Source of the DNA: Oceanibacterium hippocampi
GTDB taxonomy: Bacteria; Pseudomonadota; Alphaproteobacteria; Sneathiellales; Sneathiellaceae
Length of the DNA stretch: 64,000 nt
Direction of reading: 5' to 3'
Assembly: GCF_900172325.1 (NCBI RefSeq)
Contig: NZ_FWFR01000006.1
Span: 62,001-126,000 of the forward strand
Below, piece by piece: positions 21,162 through 42,922 of the stretch (within the stretch, counting starts at the first letter, position 1; every line of letters begins with the position of its first letter). Both the position numbers and the translations under genes were made by a program. The notes beneath the pieces are model-generated. The model was not told the DNA's origin. It saw only the letters and a program-made list of their open reading frames with translations, and searched no databases.

Positions 21162-21854
21162 TCAGCCAAATCCCGCTCCCCGCATCAGGAGGCCGGTAAC
21201 GCCGTCGACCAGTGGATGCAGGACCTGGCGGAAGATATCCAGGTCGAGGCCGACCGCGCCGCCGAGCAGCGGCAGCAGGATCAGCAGCCCGAGCAGGATC
21301 AGGATGCCGTAACGCTCGAGCCGGGCGAGCGGAAAGGCCAGCCGGTCCGGCAGCAGCCCGACCGCGACCCGGCCGCCATCGAGCGGCGGCAGCGGGATCA
21401 TGTTGAAGACCGCGAGCAGGACGTTGATCAGGATCGAGTTCCGCAGGTTGTAGAACACCCACTCCTGGGCCTCGCCCGGGAACAGCGGCAGCAGATGGAG
21501 CGCCAGCGCCGAGACGAAGGCGATCGCGAGATTGATCCCCGGCCCGGCCAGCGCCACCCAGACCATGTCGCGTCGCGGTTCATGCAGGCGCGCGAAATTG
21601 ACTGGCACGGGCTTCGCGTAGCCGAACAGGAAGGGCGACTTCAGCAACAGCAGAAGCGCCGGCAGCAGGATCGTCCCGAAGCGGTCGATATGGGCGAACG
21701 GGTTGAAGGTGACCCGGCCGAGCCGTTTCGCGGTGTCGTCGCCGAGCCGCCAGGCGACCCAGCCATGCGCCGCTTCGTGCAACGTGATCGCGATCAGCAG
21801 GGGCGCCACCCAGACGGAGACGGTGTAAAGGATCCGCGTCAGGTCGCCGTCCAT
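21162..21854 (-). CDS. Site-2-protease-like M50 membrane metallopeptidase
   Basis: 230 residues with five or six membrane helices. ITLHEAAHGWVA supplies the HExxH zinc site and NMIPLPPLDGGRV the third ligand, as in the small FtsH-independent M50B peptidases. The family cleaves membrane-bound substrates within the bilayer; the substrate here is unknown. The ATG at 21854 lies inside the end of nagZ (16-base overlap), so the two are co-expressed. The gene lies between nagZ and scpA, as often seen in alphaproteobacteria. Confidence 0.9.
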   Translation of the reverse strand: MDGDLTRILYTVSVWVAPLLIAITLHEAAHGWVAWRLGDDTAKRLGRVTFNPFAHIDRFGTILLPALLLLLKSPFLFGYAKPVPVNFARLHEPRRDMVWVALAGPGINLAIAFVSALALHLLPLFPGEAQEWVFYNLRNSILINVLLAVFNMIPLPPLDGGRVAVGLLPDRLAFPLARLERYGILILLGLLILLPLLGGAVGLDLDIFRQVLHPLVDGVTGLLMRGAGFG

Positions 21855-22891
21855 GAAATTCCTTCCAGTAGGGCGGCGAGTTCGGTCTGCACCGCCGCGA
21901 TGTCGAATTCGGTCGAGCGCCGGGTCAGGCGATAATCCTCGGCCGCCCGCACCCGCGCCGCCGCGGCCGCGTCGAGCGGCCGGATCGCGGCCGCGATGCC
22001 CTTCATCTCGCCAAGCTCGCCATTGCAGTGGAGCGCCAAGTCGCAGCCGGCATCGAGCGCCCGGGCGGCGCGTTCGGCAACCGTCCCCTCGAGCGCCTTC
22101 ATCGACAGGTCGTCGGTCAGAAGCAACCCGGAAAAGCCGATCCGCCCGCGGATCACGTCGGCGATCACGGTCGGCGACAGCGTTGCCGGCCGGTCGGGGT
22201 CGAGCGCCTCGAACAGGATGTGGCCGGTCATCCCGATCGGCAGGTGGGCCAGCCGCGCGAAAGGCAGGAAGTCGCTGTCCGCCAGTTCCGCGAGGCCGGC
22301 GTCGACTGCCGGCAGGGCATGATGGCTGTCGACCCGGGCCCGGCCATGGCCCGGCATGTGCTTGATCACCGGCAACACGCCCGCCGCGGCCAGCCCGCCG
22401 GCAACCGCCCGGCCAAGCGCCGCGACCGCCTCCGGATCGTCGGACAGCGCCCGGTCGCCGATCGCCGCCGTGGTTTCCGGGCGCGACAGGTCGAGCGCCG
22501 GCAGGCAATCGACGGTGATGCCGAGCCGCGCCAACTCGTCGCCGATCAGCCGGGCATTCAGGCCGGCGGCGCGCACCGCATCGATCCGGTCGCGTTGCCA
22601 GAGCCGCCCGAACACCGCCTGCGGCGGGGCGCTCCGCCAGTGCGGCGGGTGCAACCGGGCGACCCGGCCGCCTTCCTGGTCGATCAGGACCGGGGCGTCG
22701 TCACGGCCGACGCAATCGCGCAGATCGTCGACCAGCCGGCGCACCTGGTCCGGCGACTGGCAGTTGCGCTGGAACAGGATGAAGCCGACCGGGTCGGCCT
22801 CGGCGAAGAACGCGCGTTGAGCCGCGCCGAGCTCCGGACCGGCAACACCGAAGATCGCGGCGAGCTGCCGGCCCGCCTCAATCGCGGACAA
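21839..22891 (-). CDS. nagZ: Beta-N-acetylhexosaminidase (GH3, peptidoglycan recycling)
   Basis: About 350 residues. Motifs are LIDQEGGRVARL, VIKHMPGHGRARVDSHHALP (catalytic Asp/His loop) and LLTDDLSMKALEG with the nucleophile Asp. NagZ removes GlcNAc from anhydromuropeptides in the cytoplasm. I place the start at a TTG (22891) that overlaps the end of the SPOR gene; the exact start is uncertain because no ATG is near. It lies in the conserved SPOR-nagZ-scpAB order. Confidence 0.92.
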   Translation of the reverse strand: MSAIEAGRQLAAIFGVAGPELGAAQRAFFAEADPVGFILFQRNCQSPDQVRRLVDDLRDCVGRDDAPVLIDQEGGRVARLHPPHWRSAPPQAVFGRLWQRDRIDAVRAAGLNARLIGDELARLGITVDCLPALDLSRPETTAAIGDRALSDDPEAVAALGRAVAGGLAAAGVLPVIKHMPGHGRARVDSHHALPAVDAGLAELADSDFLPFARLAHLPIGMTGHILFEALDPDRPATLSPTVIADVIRGRIGFSGLLLTDDLSMKALEGTVAERAARALDAGCDLALHCNGELGEMKGIAAAIRPLDAAAAARVRAAEDYRLTRRSTEFDIAAVQTELAALLEGISWTAT

Positions 22892-23813
22892 CGAAACAGT
22901 CCAGCTTGCCGGCCTTGAAGCGGGCGCACAGCGCGTCGGCGCCATCCTTGTCGGCAAAGCCGCCGATCTGGATGCGGTAGCGCACGCCGCTGCCGCCGAC
23001 ATCGGCCCGGCGGATGCGGTGGCTTTCGCCCTTCAGCAATGCGCCATGGCGGGCGAGAAGCCGGTCCCAGCCATCCTTCGCAGCGGCCTCGCTCTGCAGG
23101 GAGGCGACCTGGACCCGGTAAAGCGGCGCGCCGTCCGCCGCCGGCGCGGTTTCCGCCACCGGCGCCTTGACCACGGGTGCGGGCGGGGCAACAGGCGCCG
23201 CAGCCGCTTGCGGCGCCTCGGGCTGGCTGGCCTCGTCCGCCGTCGTCCCGTGATCGGGCACGCTCTTGGCGATCAGTTCGGCGACCTTGTCGGCATTCTC
23301 CGGCGTCACTTCCTCGACCACGACTTTCGACGGCAGCCCGCCCTCGGCGCTTTCTGCCGCCTCACTGGCGGCCTCGGTACCCTCGGACGGCGGCGCGACC
23401 TGCCCGTCCGTCGTCGCGTCGTCCGCCCCGACCTCTGCCCCGGCTTCGGCGGTGCGGGCCTCCGGCTCGACCGGCGCCTCGGGCAGCGGCTCCTCGGGCG
23501 GCGGCAACAGCCGCTCGATCCGCGGCGGCTGCGCCCCGCCCTCGAGGCTCTCGAAGACCAGCTTGTCCCGGTTCGGCACGTCCATGCCGCCCGGGTCCTC
23601 CGGCGGAACCTTGATCGGGCCGGGCTCGGCCTTGACCAGCGGCGGCGTGATCCGCACGCCCTCGTCCGGCGCCTGCCTGAGGCTGAGCCACGCGCCGCCG
23701 CCGATGATCAGCGCCGCGGAAACGAGCGAGAGGGCAGCCGCGAGCTTGAGCCGGCCCTTGAGGCCCGGGTCCTCGACGTGCCTGCCGTCGTCATAATCGC
23801 TCTCGTCATGCAT
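22878..23813 (-). CDS. SPOR-domain inner-membrane protein
   Basis: 311 residues: a cytoplasmic N-terminus, one membrane helix (about 24-46), a long proline/alanine/glutamate-rich periplasmic linker, and a C-terminal SPOR domain (about 228-311, LYRVQVASLQSEAAAKDGW to CFVVRD). SPOR domains bind glycan strands lacking stem peptides at the septum. In alphaproteobacteria this gene normally follows argS directly; here it follows the shortened ArgS-like gene with a one-base overlap (TGATG). Confidence 0.9.
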   Translation of the reverse strand: MHDESDYDDGRHVEDPGLKGRLKLAAALSLVSAALIIGGGAWLSLRQAPDEGVRITPPLVKAEPGPIKVPPEDPGGMDVPNRDKLVFESLEGGAQPPRIERLLPPPEEPLPEAPVEPEARTAEAGAEVGADDATTDGQVAPPSEGTEAASEAAESAEGGLPSKVVVEEVTPENADKVAELIAKSVPDHGTTADEASQPEAPQAAAAPVAPPAPVVKAPVAETAPAADGAPLYRVQVASLQSEAAAKDGWDRLLARHGALLKGESHRIRRADVGGSGVRYRIQIGGFADKDGADALCARFKAGKLDCFVVRD

Positions 23814-24802
23814 CAGAACGCACTTTCCGTGGCCGTCATATCCAGCATCATCATGGCATCCGCGACAACATATCGAAATGCGCGCAAAAGGCCATGTCGC
23901 GTCGTCGTCAGCGCCGCCGGGTCGCGCACCGGACCGCCCTCGCCGATCATCGCGAGAAGCGTCCGGGCGAGCGCCAGGAGCGCCACCGGCAGGCGCTCCG
24001 GCTCGCCGGCAACGAGCGCCCCGGCGAGCACCCGGGGCCAGCCCGCAAGTTGCTTCATCAGGGCAAGCTCGTTGGCCGAGAAGACTGCCGCTCCGTCGCC
24101 GGACGGCATCGCCGCGCCGCCGAGCAGGCTTGCCGCGCGGGCATCGGCATAGGGCACGAGAAAGGCCGGATTATGGCGGCCGCGATCCGCGACGGCGGCA
24201 CGCAACTCATCGACGCCCGCCTCCGGCGGCTGGCCGAGCAGGTCGAGCGGCGTCAGGCCCGGCGGCAGGACCGGGACCGCGACCGGGCGGCCTGCCCCGC
24301 CGTGCAGACGGGCGAGATTGTCGAGCACCCGGCGCCGCACATCGCGGCGCAGAAGCGCCAGGGGGTGCGCCGGTCCGTCGGTCTCAGGCGGCATCGTAAC
24401 CGGCGCGGTGATCCGGGCACGCGGCATGCCGTCGAGCAGCCGCATGGTCTCGCGCAACCAGCAGGCGGCAGGAAGATGCAAGTTGAGATAGCCGGGCGCC
24501 ACGGCCTCCGGCCGGCCCGGGCCGCCGTCGGCGGTGAACCGATCGGCGATCGCGTCGGCGAGATCCATCGCCGCCATTCCGGCCTCTCCCGCGAGGCGGA
24601 GCGCCACCCGGCTGCTCAGGTCGCCGGCCCGGCCTGGACGCGACGGGCGGAAGCGCGCCTCGACCGAAACCGCCTCGCCGAGTCCGGGCAGCACGGCGGC
24701 CGTCGCCGCGCCCAGGCGGTCGTTCAGCGCGTCCAGATAGTCGCCCGCGACCACGCCCGCGCCACTCGCTCGAATTGACAACGGCGACCTTGCTCCATAC
24801 AT
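23813..24802 (-). CDS. ArgS-like protein lacking the catalytic domain (Add-1-like + DALR anticodon-binding domains)
   Basis: 329 residues against about 560-600 for arginyl-tRNA synthetase. Residues 20-115 resemble the ArgS N-terminal tRNA-binding domain (GDLSSRVALRLAGEAGM, VAPGYLNLHLPAACW). Residues 196-329 resemble the anticodon domain (HNPAFLVPYADARAASLL, ELALMKQLAGWPRVL, EPERLPVALLALARTL, LLRAFRYVVADAMMMLD). Between them only an ~80-residue proline-rich linker remains: the Rossmann core with HIGH- and KMSK-type motifs is absent. The frame is open throughout, so it is not a fresh pseudogene. It sits in the slot normally held by argS, upstream of the SPOR gene. It could bind tRNA-Arg or be an evolving remnant; a true argS must exist elsewhere. 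The ATG at 24802 avoids overlap with erpA. Confidence 0.75.
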   Translation of the reverse strand: MYGARSPLSIRASGAGVVAGDYLDALNDRLGAATAAVLPGLGEAVSVEARFRPSRPGRAGDLSSRVALRLAGEAGMAAMDLADAIADRFTADGGPGRPEAVAPGYLNLHLPAACWLRETMRLLDGMPRARITAPVTMPPETDGPAHPLALLRRDVRRRVLDNLARLHGGAGRPVAVPVLPPGLTPLDLLGQPPEAGVDELRAAVADRGRHNPAFLVPYADARAASLLGGAAMPSGDGAAVFSANELALMKQLAGWPRVLAGALVAGEPERLPVALLALARTLLAMIGEGGPVRDPAALTTTRHGLLRAFRYVVADAMMMLDMTATESAF

Positions 24803-24844: not shown

Positions 24845-25201
24845 ATGAGTGACAACGGGCCAACGGGGATCGACATCCCGGTCAGCGTCTCGGCGCGCGC
24901 CGCCCGGCGTATCGCGGCCATTCTCGCCGCCGACGAGACGACGGACGCGAAACTGCGGGTCGCCGTGCAGGGCGGCGGCTGTTCCGGCTTCCAGTATGAC
25001 TTCAGCATCGAGGCTACCCAGAACGCCGACGACCTGGCGATCGAGCGCGACGGCGTGACCGTCCTGGTCGACCCGATCTCGCTGATGTACCTGGCCGGAT
25101 CGGAGATCGATTTCACCGAGGACCTGATCGGCGCCGCCTTCCGTATCCACAATCCGAACGCGACCGCGTCCTGCGGCTGCGGCTCCTCCTTCTCTATCTG
25201 A
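24845..25201 (+). CDS. erpA: Iron-sulfur cluster carrier of the IscA/ErpA family
   Basis: 118 residues from the ATG at 24845 (a TTG at 24812 would add 11). The A-type carrier cysteines are present: VQGGGCSGFQYDF and the C-terminal SCGCGSSF. It takes Fe-S clusters from the scaffold to apo-enzymes. It is divergent from the ArgS-like gene with only 42 bases between starts. In most relatives dgt stands between erpA and argS; here it does not. Confidence 0.9.
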   Translation: MSDNGPTGIDIPVSVSARAARRIAAILAADETTDAKLRVAVQGGGCSGFQYDFSIEATQNADDLAIERDGVTVLVDPISLMYLAGSEIDFTEDLIGAAFRIHNPNATASCGCGSSFSI

Positions 25202-25312: not shown

Positions 25313-26080
25313 ATGAAAATCGCCACCTGGAACGTCAATTCGGTCAAGGCGCGGCTGGAGTTGCTGCTCGACTATCTCCGCGAGGAAGCCCCCGACGTCG
25401 TCTGCCTGCAGGAACTCAAGTGCCAGGACGCGGGTTTCCCGGCGCTGGAGATCGAGGATCAGGGCTACAACATCGCCGTGCATGGCCAGAAGAGCTACAA
25501 CGGCGTCGCGATCCTGTCCAAGAGGCCGATCGAGGATGTCACGCGCGGCCTGCCCGGCGACGACAACGACGAACAGGCCCGCTACATCGAGGCGGTCATC
25601 GACGGAGTCCGTGTCGCCTCGATCTACCTGCCGAACGGCAACCCGGTGGACAGCCCGAAATTTCCCTACAAGCTTGCCTGGCTGGGTCGTCTGGAGGCCC
25701 ATGTCCAAACGCTTCTCGCCTACGAGGAGCCGTTCGTCCTGGCCGGTGACTACAATGTCATCCCGCAGGATATCGATTGCTACGATCCCGAGCTCTGGGC
25801 CAAGGACGCGCTCGGCCGGCCGGAGACCCGCGCCGCCTTCCGGCGCATCCTCAATCTCGGCCTGACGGAAGCCTTCCGGACGCTGCACAAGCGGCACGAC
25901 TATACCTTCTGGGACTACCAGCGGGGCGCCTGGGAACGCGACAACGGGCTCCGCATCGACCATCTGCTGCTGTCGCCGCAAGCGACCGACCGGCTGCTTG
26001 CCTGCGAGATCGACAAGCGGCCCCGGGCCAAGCCCCGGCCGTCCGACCACACGCCGATCTGGTGCGAACTTTCGGAATGA
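25313..26080 (+). CDS. xthA: Exodeoxyribonuclease III (AP endonuclease)
   Basis: 255 residues, EEP superfamily. It begins MKIATWNVNSVKARL, then LQELKCQD (metal-binding Glu), SIYLPNGNP, LAGDYNVIP and SDHTPIW (catalytic Asp/His). It cleaves at abasic sites in base excision repair. The ATG at 25313 coincides with the family start. It follows erpA by 111 bases. Confidence 0.94.
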   Translation: MKIATWNVNSVKARLELLLDYLREEAPDVVCLQELKCQDAGFPALEIEDQGYNIAVHGQKSYNGVAILSKRPIEDVTRGLPGDDNDEQARYIEAVIDGVRVASIYLPNGNPVDSPKFPYKLAWLGRLEAHVQTLLAYEEPFVLAGDYNVIPQDIDCYDPELWAKDALGRPETRAAFRRILNLGLTEAFRTLHKRHDYTFWDYQRGAWERDNGLRIDHLLLSPQATDRLLACEIDKRPRAKPRPSDHTPIWCELSE

Positions 26081-34333: not shown

Positions 34334-34407
34334 GGCCTGGTGGCGGAGTGGTGACGCAGCGGACTGCAAATCCGTGTACACCGGTTCGATTCCGGTCCAG
34401 GCCTCCA
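34334..34407 (+). tRNA. tRNA-Cys (anticodon GCA)
   Basis: 74 bases that fold as a cloverleaf: acceptor stem GGCCTGG/CCAGGCC, anticodon loop with GCA (within GGACTGCAAATCCG), T-arm CCGGTTCGATTCCGG, discriminator T and an encoded CCA. It matches the tRNA-Cys consensus of alphaproteobacteria. An integrase gene begins 35 bases downstream, so its 3' part is the likely phage attachment site; the copy here is a complete functional tRNA. Confidence 0.96.
34370..34407. other. Likely prophage attL core within the tRNA-Cys 3' half
   Basis: The tRNA gene is immediately followed by phage DNA with a tyrosine integrase reading toward it, the standard arrangement for integration into a tRNA 3' end. The phage should carry the same 3' segment so the tRNA is restored. 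The exact core cannot be set because the other copy (attR) lies beyond base 64000. Confidence 0.55.
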
Positions 34408-34442: not shown

Positions 34443-35552
34443 TCAGAAATGGTCCCACTCGTCGCCGGAAGTGGGACCTTTGCTGTTCCGATTCCGTTCG
34501 TCCTCGAGGCGGACGACGGCGGCGGAGGCGAGCTTCTTCTGACGGGCGCCGCGGGTGTATCGCGTGACCTCCTTCGAGGTCCGGTGGCCGGTCCAGGCCT
34601 TGATTTCCTCCTCCGAGCAGCCGGCCTCGGCCAGCCTCGCGGCGGCCGCCTTGCGGAGCCCGTGAGCCGAGCAGTGCGGCAGGCCGGCCTCGTCGCAGCG
34701 CCGGCGAAACCAATTGCCGAAGCCGTTGGCGGTGAAGGGCTTGCCGAACCCGGTCACGAGGAAGGCAAGATCGCCGGTCGGCGAGGCGTCAATGACGGCC
34801 TGCAGCTCCGGCAGGACCGGCAACGAGAGGGTCACCGGGGCGCGGTTCCGGCCCTTGAACTGGGTCAACGTCAGCCAGCCGGCACGAACATGCTGACGGC
34901 CCATGCGGACCACGTCGCTCTTGCGCTGCGCGGTGTAGAGGAACAGCGCGAGGGCCAGCCGCGCCTTCGTCCCGACCGGGTGCGCCCGTTCGAAGCGCTC
35001 GACCTCCTCGATCGACCATGAATGGTAACCCTGGCTGCCGCTTCGCAGCAGCGGCACGTCGGCAGCGGGGTTCCGTTCGATCCTGTCCGGCTCGGCCTCG
35101 ACCGCCCAGGCGAAGACGACGCGCAGCGCCTTGACGATGGCATTGGCCGCCTCGACCTTGTCCGCGCGTTCGTCGCGGAGCTTGCGGACGTGACGCGGCG
35201 CCATGGCCGCCAGGGGCTTGTGACCGTGCTTCTCGCAAAGCCGATCGAGGATCCGCCGTCGGGCGGCCTGGGTCGACGGCGCCAGCGCCCGGAATTCCGG
35301 CGAGGACTGGTAGCCGACGACGAACCAGCGGAGCGAGCCCGTGGCGCCGCGCCGGTGATCGATCGCCTCAGCCGATGCGCTGGGCGCGCCGTCGCGGGCC
35401 GCATGATAGGCGGCCATGAAGGCGTCGGAACCGAAGACATCGGGCAATCGAACCTTCGGCCATGGCCGCCGCCGGAAGTAATAGCGGACCTGGCCGGTCC
35501 TGCTGACGTCACGGACGACGAAGGGAAGATGAAGGCGGACCACGTCGCTCAT
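34443..35552 (-). CDS. int: Prophage tyrosine recombinase (integrase)
   Basis: 369 residues. The C-terminal catalytic domain has R210 (in TAQRKSDVV), K233, H297 and R300 (in SAHGLRKAAAARL), H323 (TGHRTSKEV) and nucleophile Y332 (RYT), the full set for the family. Residues about 75-160 form the core-binding SAM-like domain. It catalyses integration and excision at the adjacent tRNA-Cys. It reads toward the tRNA, and its start overlaps the stop of the excisionase-like gene (ATGA). Confidence 0.94.
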   Translation of the reverse strand: MSDVVRLHLPFVVRDVSRTGQVRYYFRRRPWPKVRLPDVFGSDAFMAAYHAARDGAPSASAEAIDHRRGATGSLRWFVVGYQSSPEFRALAPSTQAARRRILDRLCEKHGHKPLAAMAPRHVRKLRDERADKVEAANAIVKALRVVFAWAVEAEPDRIERNPAADVPLLRSGSQGYHSWSIEEVERFERAHPVGTKARLALALFLYTAQRKSDVVRMGRQHVRAGWLTLTQFKGRNRAPVTLSLPVLPELQAVIDASPTGDLAFLVTGFGKPFTANGFGNWFRRRCDEAGLPHCSAHGLRKAAAARLAEAGCSEEEIKAWTGHRTSKEVTRYTRGARQKKLASAAVVRLEDERNRNSKGPTSGDEWDHF

Positions 35553-41803: not shown

Positions 41804-42922
41804 ATGGGCGACCATAGCAAGATCGAGTGGACCGACGCGACCTGGAACCCGATCCGGGGCTGCAGCCGCGTCAGCCAGGGTTGCGTCAACTGCTACGCGG
41901 AACGGGTCGCGGCGCGGTTCTCCAAGCCCGGGCAAGCCTATGCGGGGGTGATCGATCGCCACGGCCGCTGGAACGGCCGGATCCGGCTGGTCGAGCACAA
42001 GCTCGACGAACCGCTGCGGTGGAAGAAGCCACGCCGGATCTTCGTGAACTCCATGTCGGACCTGTTCCACGAGGCGGTGCCGGTCGAGGTCGTCGATCAC
42101 GTTTTTGCCGTCATGCGCCTGGCGGCGCAGCACCGGTTCCAGATCCTGACCAAACGACCGGCCCGGATGCGAGCCTATCTGGCCGACAGATCGACGGCCA
42201 GGGCGACCAGTCGCGGCGAGATATTCGCCAAGCTCGCGCCCGGCCATCTGATGGAGGGCTGCAGCTGGCCGCTCCGGAACGTCTGGCTCGGTGTCTCGAT
42301 CGAGGACCAGGCGACGGCCGACGCGCGCATTCCGGACCTGCTGGCGACGCCGGCGGCGGTGCGCTTTGTCAGCTACGAGCCGGCAATCGGGCCGGTGGAT
42401 CTGTCCCGGGCCATCGCCATCGACTGGCAGTGCACGACATGTCGCAGCTATTTCAGTGGCCCCCATCGGCCGACCTGCCCTGGTTGCGGCGCGGTTGGCG
42501 GCTGGTGCGGGTCTCACGCCTTCAACGGGCGAGGTTATCCAGACGGGCCGATTGCGCCGTCGCAGCGTGGGGCCGGCATCGACTGGATCATATGTGGCGG
42601 CGAGAGCGGCCCGGGCGCGCGGCCGATGCATCCTGATTGGGCGCGTTCCGTTCGCGACCAGTGCAGGGCGGCGGGAGTGCCGTTCTTCTTCAAGCAGTGG
42701 GGCGAGTGGGCGCCGACAGGTCAATCGACGGCGGCGGACGAGAAAGCGGCTGAAGGTGACTTCTTCCTCTTGCACTCCGACGGCGGGATCGACGTTCCCG
42801 ACGACAGATGGCCGGACGACGAGAGCGGCGAGATTGCCATCACGAGAATCGGGAAGAAGGCCGGCGGCGCGCTGCTGGACGGCGTTGCGCACAGGGAATT
42901 CCCGGACGATCCGGGCGCATGA
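41804..42922 (+). CDS. Phage Gp37/Gp68-type protein (DUF5131)
   Basis: 372 residues. The N-terminus KIEWTDATWNPIRGCSRVSQ with GCVNCYAERVAARF is the DUF5131 signature; the three cysteines (C-x6-C-x2-C) recall the cluster-binding motif of radical-SAM enzymes but the function is not established. FVNSMSDLFHEAVP and ICGGESGPGARPM are also typical. About 200 residues in there is a four-cysteine zinc ribbon (CTTC...CPGC). It lies just before an HTH gene and the DNA methyltransferase. Confidence 0.82.
   Translation: MGDHSKIEWTDATWNPIRGCSRVSQGCVNCYAERVAARFSKPGQAYAGVIDRHGRWNGRIRLVEHKLDEPLRWKKPRRIFVNSMSDLFHEAVPVEVVDHVFAVMRLAAQHRFQILTKRPARMRAYLADRSTARATSRGEIFAKLAPGHLMEGCSWPLRNVWLGVSIEDQATADARIPDLLATPAAVRFVSYEPAIGPVDLSRAIAIDWQCTTCRSYFSGPHRPTCPGCGAVGGWCGSHAFNGRGYPDGPIAPSQRGAGIDWIICGGESGPGARPMHPDWARSVRDQCRAAGVPFFFKQWGEWAPTGQSTAADEKAAEGDFFLLHSDGGIDVPDDRWPDDESGEIAITRIGKKAGGALLDGVAHREFPDDPGA

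What the first reader, a model, noticed from the sequence alone, without database searches (positions are those of the whole stretch)
23813..24802. ArgS paralogue without a catalytic core occupying the argS locus
The protein keeps ArgS-like N-terminal tRNA-binding and C-terminal DALR anticodon-binding segments but the whole Rossmann catalytic domain, with its HIGH and KMSK motifs, is replaced by an ~80-residue linker. The frame is intact, coupled by TGATG to the SPOR gene, and sits where alphaproteobacteria normally carry argS. It could be a tRNA-Arg-binding regulator, chaperone or processing factor born from a synthetase, or a decaying remnant retained for operon expression.
Basis: partly seen in the sequence, partly recalled or inferred. 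Interest (0 to 1): 0.78.

Follow-up and report, generated by a model that had tools for sequence, protein, structure and literature searches.

The report
Core-less arginyl-tRNA synthetase kept at home
In one order of marine bacteria the original arginyl-tRNA synthetase gene was replaced by a foreign copy elsewhere in the genome, lost the middle that does the chemistry, and yet has been kept for a long time as a probable tRNA-binding protein whose job is unknown.

Summary
Window 23813-24802 (minus) encodes 329 residues with the ArgS N-terminal (Add) and DALR domains and no HIGH/KMSK core; its AlphaFold model aligns end to end with E. coli ArgRS (Z 19.4, 297 residues). The "linker" is not new sequence. 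It is the collapsed catalytic domain: an in-frame deletion joins the first beta-alpha unit to the segment after KMSKS.

The gene is not a duplicate. It is the resident alphaproteobacterial argS, displaced by a full-length gamma-type ArgS elsewhere in the genome. Every genome at least 90% complete in the order Sneathiellales (19 of 19) has it; no other lineage among 385 sampled Alphaproteobacteria does. In 16 of 24 other alphaproteobacteria with the same replacement ArgS, argS is cleanly missing; one unrelated genome holds a DALR-only remnant.

In Sneathiella the protein is under purifying selection (omega 0.23-0.36) in all domains. The Asn that reads A20 of tRNA-Arg is invariant, also in the window. 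Best reading: a non-catalytic tRNA-Arg-binding adaptor or regulator. Binding is inferred, the partner unknown. The window copy is the most diverged member and could be weakening.

The parts
23813..24802 (-). core-less ArgS ORF (329 aa as annotated; probable true start GTG at 24754, 313 aa)
   Evidence: translation; Pfam; structure; relatives start at the equivalent of residue ~17-20
24473..24676 (-). Add domain (Arg_tRNA_synt_N, residues 43-110)
   Evidence: E 1.3e-8; model aligns with Klebsiella ArgRS N-domain 3gdz, Z 11.5
24482..24490 (-). Y105-L-N107 of the GYxN motif; the Asn is the residue that reads A20 in bacterial ArgRS
   Evidence: invariant Y and N in A2; N 19/19 in the other core-less proteins; role of the Asn from PMC8318970
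24173..24412 (-). collapsed catalytic domain (residues ~131-210): one beta-alpha unit without HIGH joined to the post-KMSKS segment; deletion junction near residues 168-175
   Evidence: alignment; conserved R152, G168; model
24137..24172 (-). NPxFxxPYAxAR segment (residues 211-222), equivalent of NPVFYVQYAHAR in ArgRS; carries the clade-specific Q-to-P change
23825..24151 (-). DALR anticodon-binding domain (residues 218-326)
   Evidence: E 1.8e-5
22878..23813 (-). SPOR-domain ORF, translationally overlapping (TGATG)
21839..23002 (-). nagZ-type glycoside hydrolase family 3 ORF (annotated start overlaps SPOR, true start probably lower)
   Evidence: 3.8e-50
24846..25201 (+). erpA-type Fe-S carrier, divergent neighbour
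   Evidence: Fe-S_biosyn 2e-18
25313..26080 (+). xth, conserved neighbour used as yardstick

Best explanation
An ancestor of the Sneathiellales carried a gammaproteobacterial-type argS elsewhere in its genome, which made the resident alphaproteobacterial argS redundant. The resident gene then lost the centre of its catalytic domain by an in-frame deletion: the stretch from the end of the first beta-alpha-beta unit to KMSKS, plus the HIGH loop. It kept the Add domain, which grips the D-loop (A20), and the DALR domain, which grips the anticodon stem-loop. The shortened protein still folds as an ArgRS clamp and was retained, with new conserved residues, as a non-catalytic protein that binds tRNA-Arg. 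It most likely acts as an adaptor or regulator, for example by presenting tRNA-Arg to another enzyme as DALRD3 does, or by holding it. Shown: origin, architecture, fold prediction, lineage restriction, purifying selection in Sneathiella. Inferred: tRNA-Arg binding. Unknown: the partner or process.
For: Domain hits and absence of the core. End-to-end structural match to E. coli ArgRS solved with tRNA-Arg, Z 19.4 for the window protein and 21.1 for a Sneathiella relative. Tree: 20 core-less proteins form one clade (100/99) attached on the alphaproteobacterial ArgS side, while Sneathiellales full-length ArgS forms one clade (100/100) inside gamma-type ArgS. Resident synteny argS-SPOR-nagZ (20 of 27 sampled argS loci). 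Present in all 19 genomes at least 90% complete in the order, absent from all other sampled Alphaproteobacteria. omega 0.23-0.36 (NG86) with bootstrap upper bounds 0.36-0.48, constraint in Add, middle, post-KMSKS and DALR alike. A20-reading Asn 20/20, and the four tRNA-Arg genes found in this genome have A20 and C35. Clade-specific fixed changes such as D450S 19/19, H541F 19/19, Q467P 17/19; Q467P and F93Y are shared by the window protein.
Against: No direct evidence of tRNA binding. The anticodon-side motif is only partly kept (R of YAHAR in 9/19; Y465 in 0/19). omega is several-fold higher than for neighbouring xth (0.03-0.08) and about three times nagZ (about 0.1), so constraint is relaxed. 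The window protein lacks many positions fixed in Sneathiella (25 of 55).
Confidence: 0.6

Rival explanations
1. Decaying remnant: the protein has no function, and the frame persists only because it carries the Shine-Dalgarno and translational coupling for the downstream SPOR gene.
For: Stop/start overlap in the window, and AAGGAG/GAGGAG-like sequence at the end of the gene in many Sneathiella loci directly before the SPOR start; relaxed omega and a very long branch for the window protein; clean loss of argS in most other displaced lineages.
Against: Coupling needs only the 3' end, but Add, middle and DALR regions all have omega 0.16-0.31; an A20-contact Asn and newly fixed residues are invariant; dgt-SPOR genomes keep SPOR without any ArgS remnant; neutral frames would close.
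Confidence: 0.2
2. Trans-acting tRNA-binding helper of the foreign ArgS (Arc1p-like): the displaced synthetase kept its tRNA-binding arms to improve charging by the newcomer.
For: Both proteins co-occur in the order.
Against: At least 20 other sampled alphaproteobacteria run the same ArgS type without any core-less protein; the newcomer has its own strong Add (2e-18) and DALR (4.4e-26) domains.
Confidence: 0.08
3. It binds a different RNA, for example a tRNA-like structure in an mRNA, and is a translational regulator rather than a tRNA-Arg protein.
For: The anticodon-side motif YVQYAHAR is rewritten in most members while the fold is kept; precedent for synthetase domains as mRNA regulators (general knowledge).
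Against: A20-reading motif GYxN is kept in 17-19 of 19, the Asn in all.
Confidence: 0.12

Closest known systems
NCBIfam NF045898, 'ArgS-related anticodon-binding protein NrtL'
   Same: 327-position ArgS-derived model without catalytic core; the window protein aligns over 23-324 (E 1.1e-17) and all 17 scanned members match it.
   Different: 64.5 bits against a curated cut-off of 340. The Sneathiellales proteins derive from alphaproteobacterial ArgS, so the likeness may be parallel evolution. No paper on NrtL was found in the library; from memory only, NrtL is annotated in Streptomyces, which was not checked here.
DALRD3 (vertebrates; PMC7237682)
   Same: DALR-bearing relative of ArgRS without a catalytic motif that binds specific tRNA-Arg and brings METTL2 to it for m3C.
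   Different: DALRD3 has a private N-terminus and no recognisable ArgS Add domain; eukaryotic; partner known. Here the Add domain is kept and no partner is known.
Bacterial ArgRS (TIGR00456; E. coli 5b63, T. thermophilus 1iq0)
   Same: Add and DALR domains, fold end to end.
   Different: No HIGH, no KMSKS, about 240 residues of the core missing; 34 bits against a cut-off of 261.65.
HisZ, YadB/Glu-Q-RS, YbaK/ProXp, AlaX
   Same: Single-purpose proteins derived from synthetases or their pieces (reviewed in PMC7373986, PMC9437257).
   Different: Those keep a catalytic or editing domain; this keeps only the tRNA-binding arms.

Membership tests
Arginine--tRNA ligase (TIGR00456 equivalog) | score above curated cut-off 261.65 bits | tested here: not met
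   34.2 bits
Arginine--tRNA ligase (TIGR00456 equivalog) | class I catalytic core with HIGH and KMSKS | tested here: not met
   no tRNA-synt_1d hit; positions absent or substituted
Arginine--tRNA ligase (TIGR00456 equivalog) | Add and DALR domains in ArgRS arrangement | tested here: met
NrtL (NF045898 equivalog) | score above curated cut-off 340 bits | tested here: not met
   64.5 bits window, 72.5 bits Sneathiella member
NrtL (NF045898 equivalog) | ArgS-related protein of ~330 aa without core, aligning along the whole model | tested here: met
   23-324 of 327
NrtL (NF045898 equivalog) | common descent with NrtL proteins | not tested
   no NrtL sequence could be fetched; tree places these proteins with alphaproteobacterial ArgS
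DALRD3-like tRNA-Arg adaptor | DALR domain without synthetase core | tested here: met
DALRD3-like tRNA-Arg adaptor | binds tRNA-Arg and recruits a modification enzyme | not testable with these tools
   needs biochemistry; only the A20-reading Asn is shown to be kept

The most novel reading that the evidence does not exclude
Core-less ArgS is a recurrent end state of synthetase displacement: a resident synthetase made redundant by a foreign copy is pared down to its tRNA-binding arms and becomes a tRNA-specific adaptor. This happened once in the ancestor of Sneathiellales, probably again in the lineage of G203, and perhaps independently in NrtL and DALRD3. The Sneathiellales protein would be a new kind of bacterial tRNA-Arg adaptor or sensor.
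Probability: 0.35. Interest if true: 0.8.

Novelty: new variant of a known kind. Interest (0 to 1): 0.6.

Why it matters
It gives a natural experiment on what becomes of an essential synthetase once a foreign copy takes over. The same locus shows three outcomes in related bacteria: the resident gene kept, the gene cleanly lost, or only its tRNA-binding arms kept. If the arms do bind tRNA-Arg, Sneathiella offers a simple bacterial system to ask what a synthetase-derived tRNA adaptor without catalysis is good for, a question so far tied to vertebrate DALRD3.

Tried and rejected
Pseudogene or sequencing-error reading: rejected (no stops in any of 23 genomes; omega well below 1). Recent duplication of the genome's own argS: rejected by the tree and by synteny. 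Plasmid-borne or mobile origin: tblastn of the window protein against plasmids found nothing. Core-less proteins elsewhere in the class: none at E <= 1e-30 in 385 genomes; at a lax threshold in 25 genomes, nearly all with the replacement ArgS, only full-length genes or weak fragments appeared. Literature on NrtL or core-less bacterial ArgS: nothing found; a term search of the review PMC9437257 found no such ArgS forms. YN00 failed on one distant pair. Promoter and terminator scan at the start of the gene found nothing.

Full report
WHAT IS THERE. Pfam finds Arg_tRNA_synt_N (1.3e-8) and DALR_1 (1.8e-5), nothing for the catalytic domain. NCBIfam's best match is NF045898, 'ArgS-related anticodon-binding protein NrtL', 1.1e-17 over nearly the whole 327-position model but far below its cut-off. 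AlphaFold with 16 Sneathiellales relatives gives pLDDT 79 and pTM 0.79 for the window protein, 90 and 0.89 for a Sneathiella relative. Both align end to end with ArgRS structures, best with E. coli ArgRS bound to tRNA-Arg (Z 19.4 over 297 residues, Z 21.1 over 315). Other class I synthetases score clearly lower (Z about 11 or less).

THE 'LINKER'. In alignment with alphaproteobacterial ArgS, the middle of the core-less proteins matches the first beta-alpha unit of the Rossmann fold (R152 and G168 of the window protein correspond to fully conserved R147 and G163 of ArgS), but the HIGH loop is shortened and its histidines are gone. The alignment then jumps to the segment starting around KMSKRAG and runs on through NPVFYVQYAHAR into the DALR domain. 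The simplest account is an in-frame deletion of about 240 residues, not replacement by foreign sequence.

ORIGIN. The genome has one full-length argS on another contig, with its own Add, catalytic and DALR domains. In a 68-protein tree on the columns shared with the core-less proteins, the 20 core-less proteins form one clade (100/99) on the alphaproteobacterial side, and all Sneathiellales full-length ArgS form one clade (100/100) within the gamma-type group. The window protein has a very long branch (3.5), so its exact position is less sure than the numbers suggest. Two shared derived residues (F93Y, Q467P) and identical synteny support it. So the core-less gene is the old resident and the working enzyme is the newcomer.

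LOCUS HISTORY. In most sampled Alphaproteobacteria with the resident enzyme, argS precedes SPOR and nagZ (20 of 27 loci). Twenty-five of the genomes with no or only a weak match to the core-less profile carry the same ArgS type as Sneathiellales. At 16 of 24 inspected nagZ loci in such genomes, dgt (identified in four by NCBIfam, in the rest by reading the sequence) lies directly before SPOR, with xth on the other side in many: argS has been removed cleanly. In Sneathiellales dgt is missing from this spot and the shortened argS remains. One unrelated genome, G203, has a 322-residue ORF directly before SPOR with a DALR domain (1.9e-10) and no recognisable Add or catalytic domain; it is absent from the five other genomes of its order. 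This looks like a second, independent and more degraded remnant, known from one genome only.

DISTRIBUTION. 23 of 26 Sneathiellales genomes have the gene; the three without are 56-66% complete. The named records are Sneathiella species and related metagenome bins. No other lineage among 385 alphaproteobacterial genomes in 277 genera has a comparable match.

SELECTION. Among Sneathiella species 60-74% identical in this protein, NG86 omega is 0.23-0.36, with bootstrap upper limits of 0.36-0.48 for three pairs; xth gives 0.03-0.08 and nagZ about 0.1. Constraint covers the Add domain (0.26), middle (0.26), post-KMSKS segment (0.16) and DALR domain (0.31). Neutral evolution would close the frame: 15 of 500 simulated window frames stay open at 0.25 substitutions per site and none at 0.5, ignoring indels. 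New clade-specific residues are fixed where ArgS has others (D450S, H541F, F555Y in 19 of 19). That is what a protein with a changed job looks like. The window copy has no close relative for such a test; its codon-position pattern (G+C 0.79, 0.57, 0.82) is that of a coding sequence, but it keeps only 30 of 55 near-invariant positions.

LIKELY FUNCTION. What remains are the two arms with which ArgRS holds tRNA-Arg. In bacteria A20, C35 and G/U36 are the main identity elements (PMC4742068), and the Asn of the Add domain is the residue tied to A20 (PMC8318970). That Asn is invariant in all 20 core-less proteins, and the four tRNA-Arg genes found here have A20 and C35. The anticodon-side motif is kept less well. 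The best reading is a tRNA-Arg-binding adaptor or regulator, comparable in principle to DALRD3, which lacks a synthetase catalytic motif and directs METTL2 to tRNA-Arg (PMC7237682). A helper role for the new ArgS is unlikely, because many bacteria run the same enzyme type without the core-less protein. Retention only for SPOR translation is unlikely for the clade, because the whole protein is constrained.

VERDICT. Real, old in its lineage, and under selection in Sneathiella; origin well supported, function inferred. NCBIfam already names an ArgS-related family of the same architecture, so this is a new variant of a known kind rather than a new category.

Noticed in passing
window 34334-34404 (+) and 34443-35552 (-): A tRNA gene (tRNA-Cys by ARAGORN on the fetched locus L144) is followed at once by a tyrosine-recombinase-type integrase ORF; downstream ORFs (e.g. 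41804-42922, weak match to a radical SAM mobile-pair protein) look like an integrated element.
   Followed up: partly
L248:3126-4091 (+), genome G203: Second, apparently independent DALR-only ArgS remnant directly upstream of SPOR-nagZ in an unrelated alphaproteobacterium.
   Followed up: partly
Sneathiellales loci L077-L092 and the window: dgt, which precedes SPOR in displaced alphaproteobacteria, is absent from the xth-erpA to SPOR interval in Sneathiellales; not checked whether it survives elsewhere.
   Followed up: no
G004:C12:832019-833751: The full-length argS of one Sneathiellales genome shows an in-frame TAG near its N-terminal match; sequencing error or a real break.
   Followed up: no
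L158-L183 (25 genomes): A gamma-type ArgS is widespread across many alphaproteobacterial families, pointing to old or repeated displacement of the resident enzyme.
   Followed up: partly
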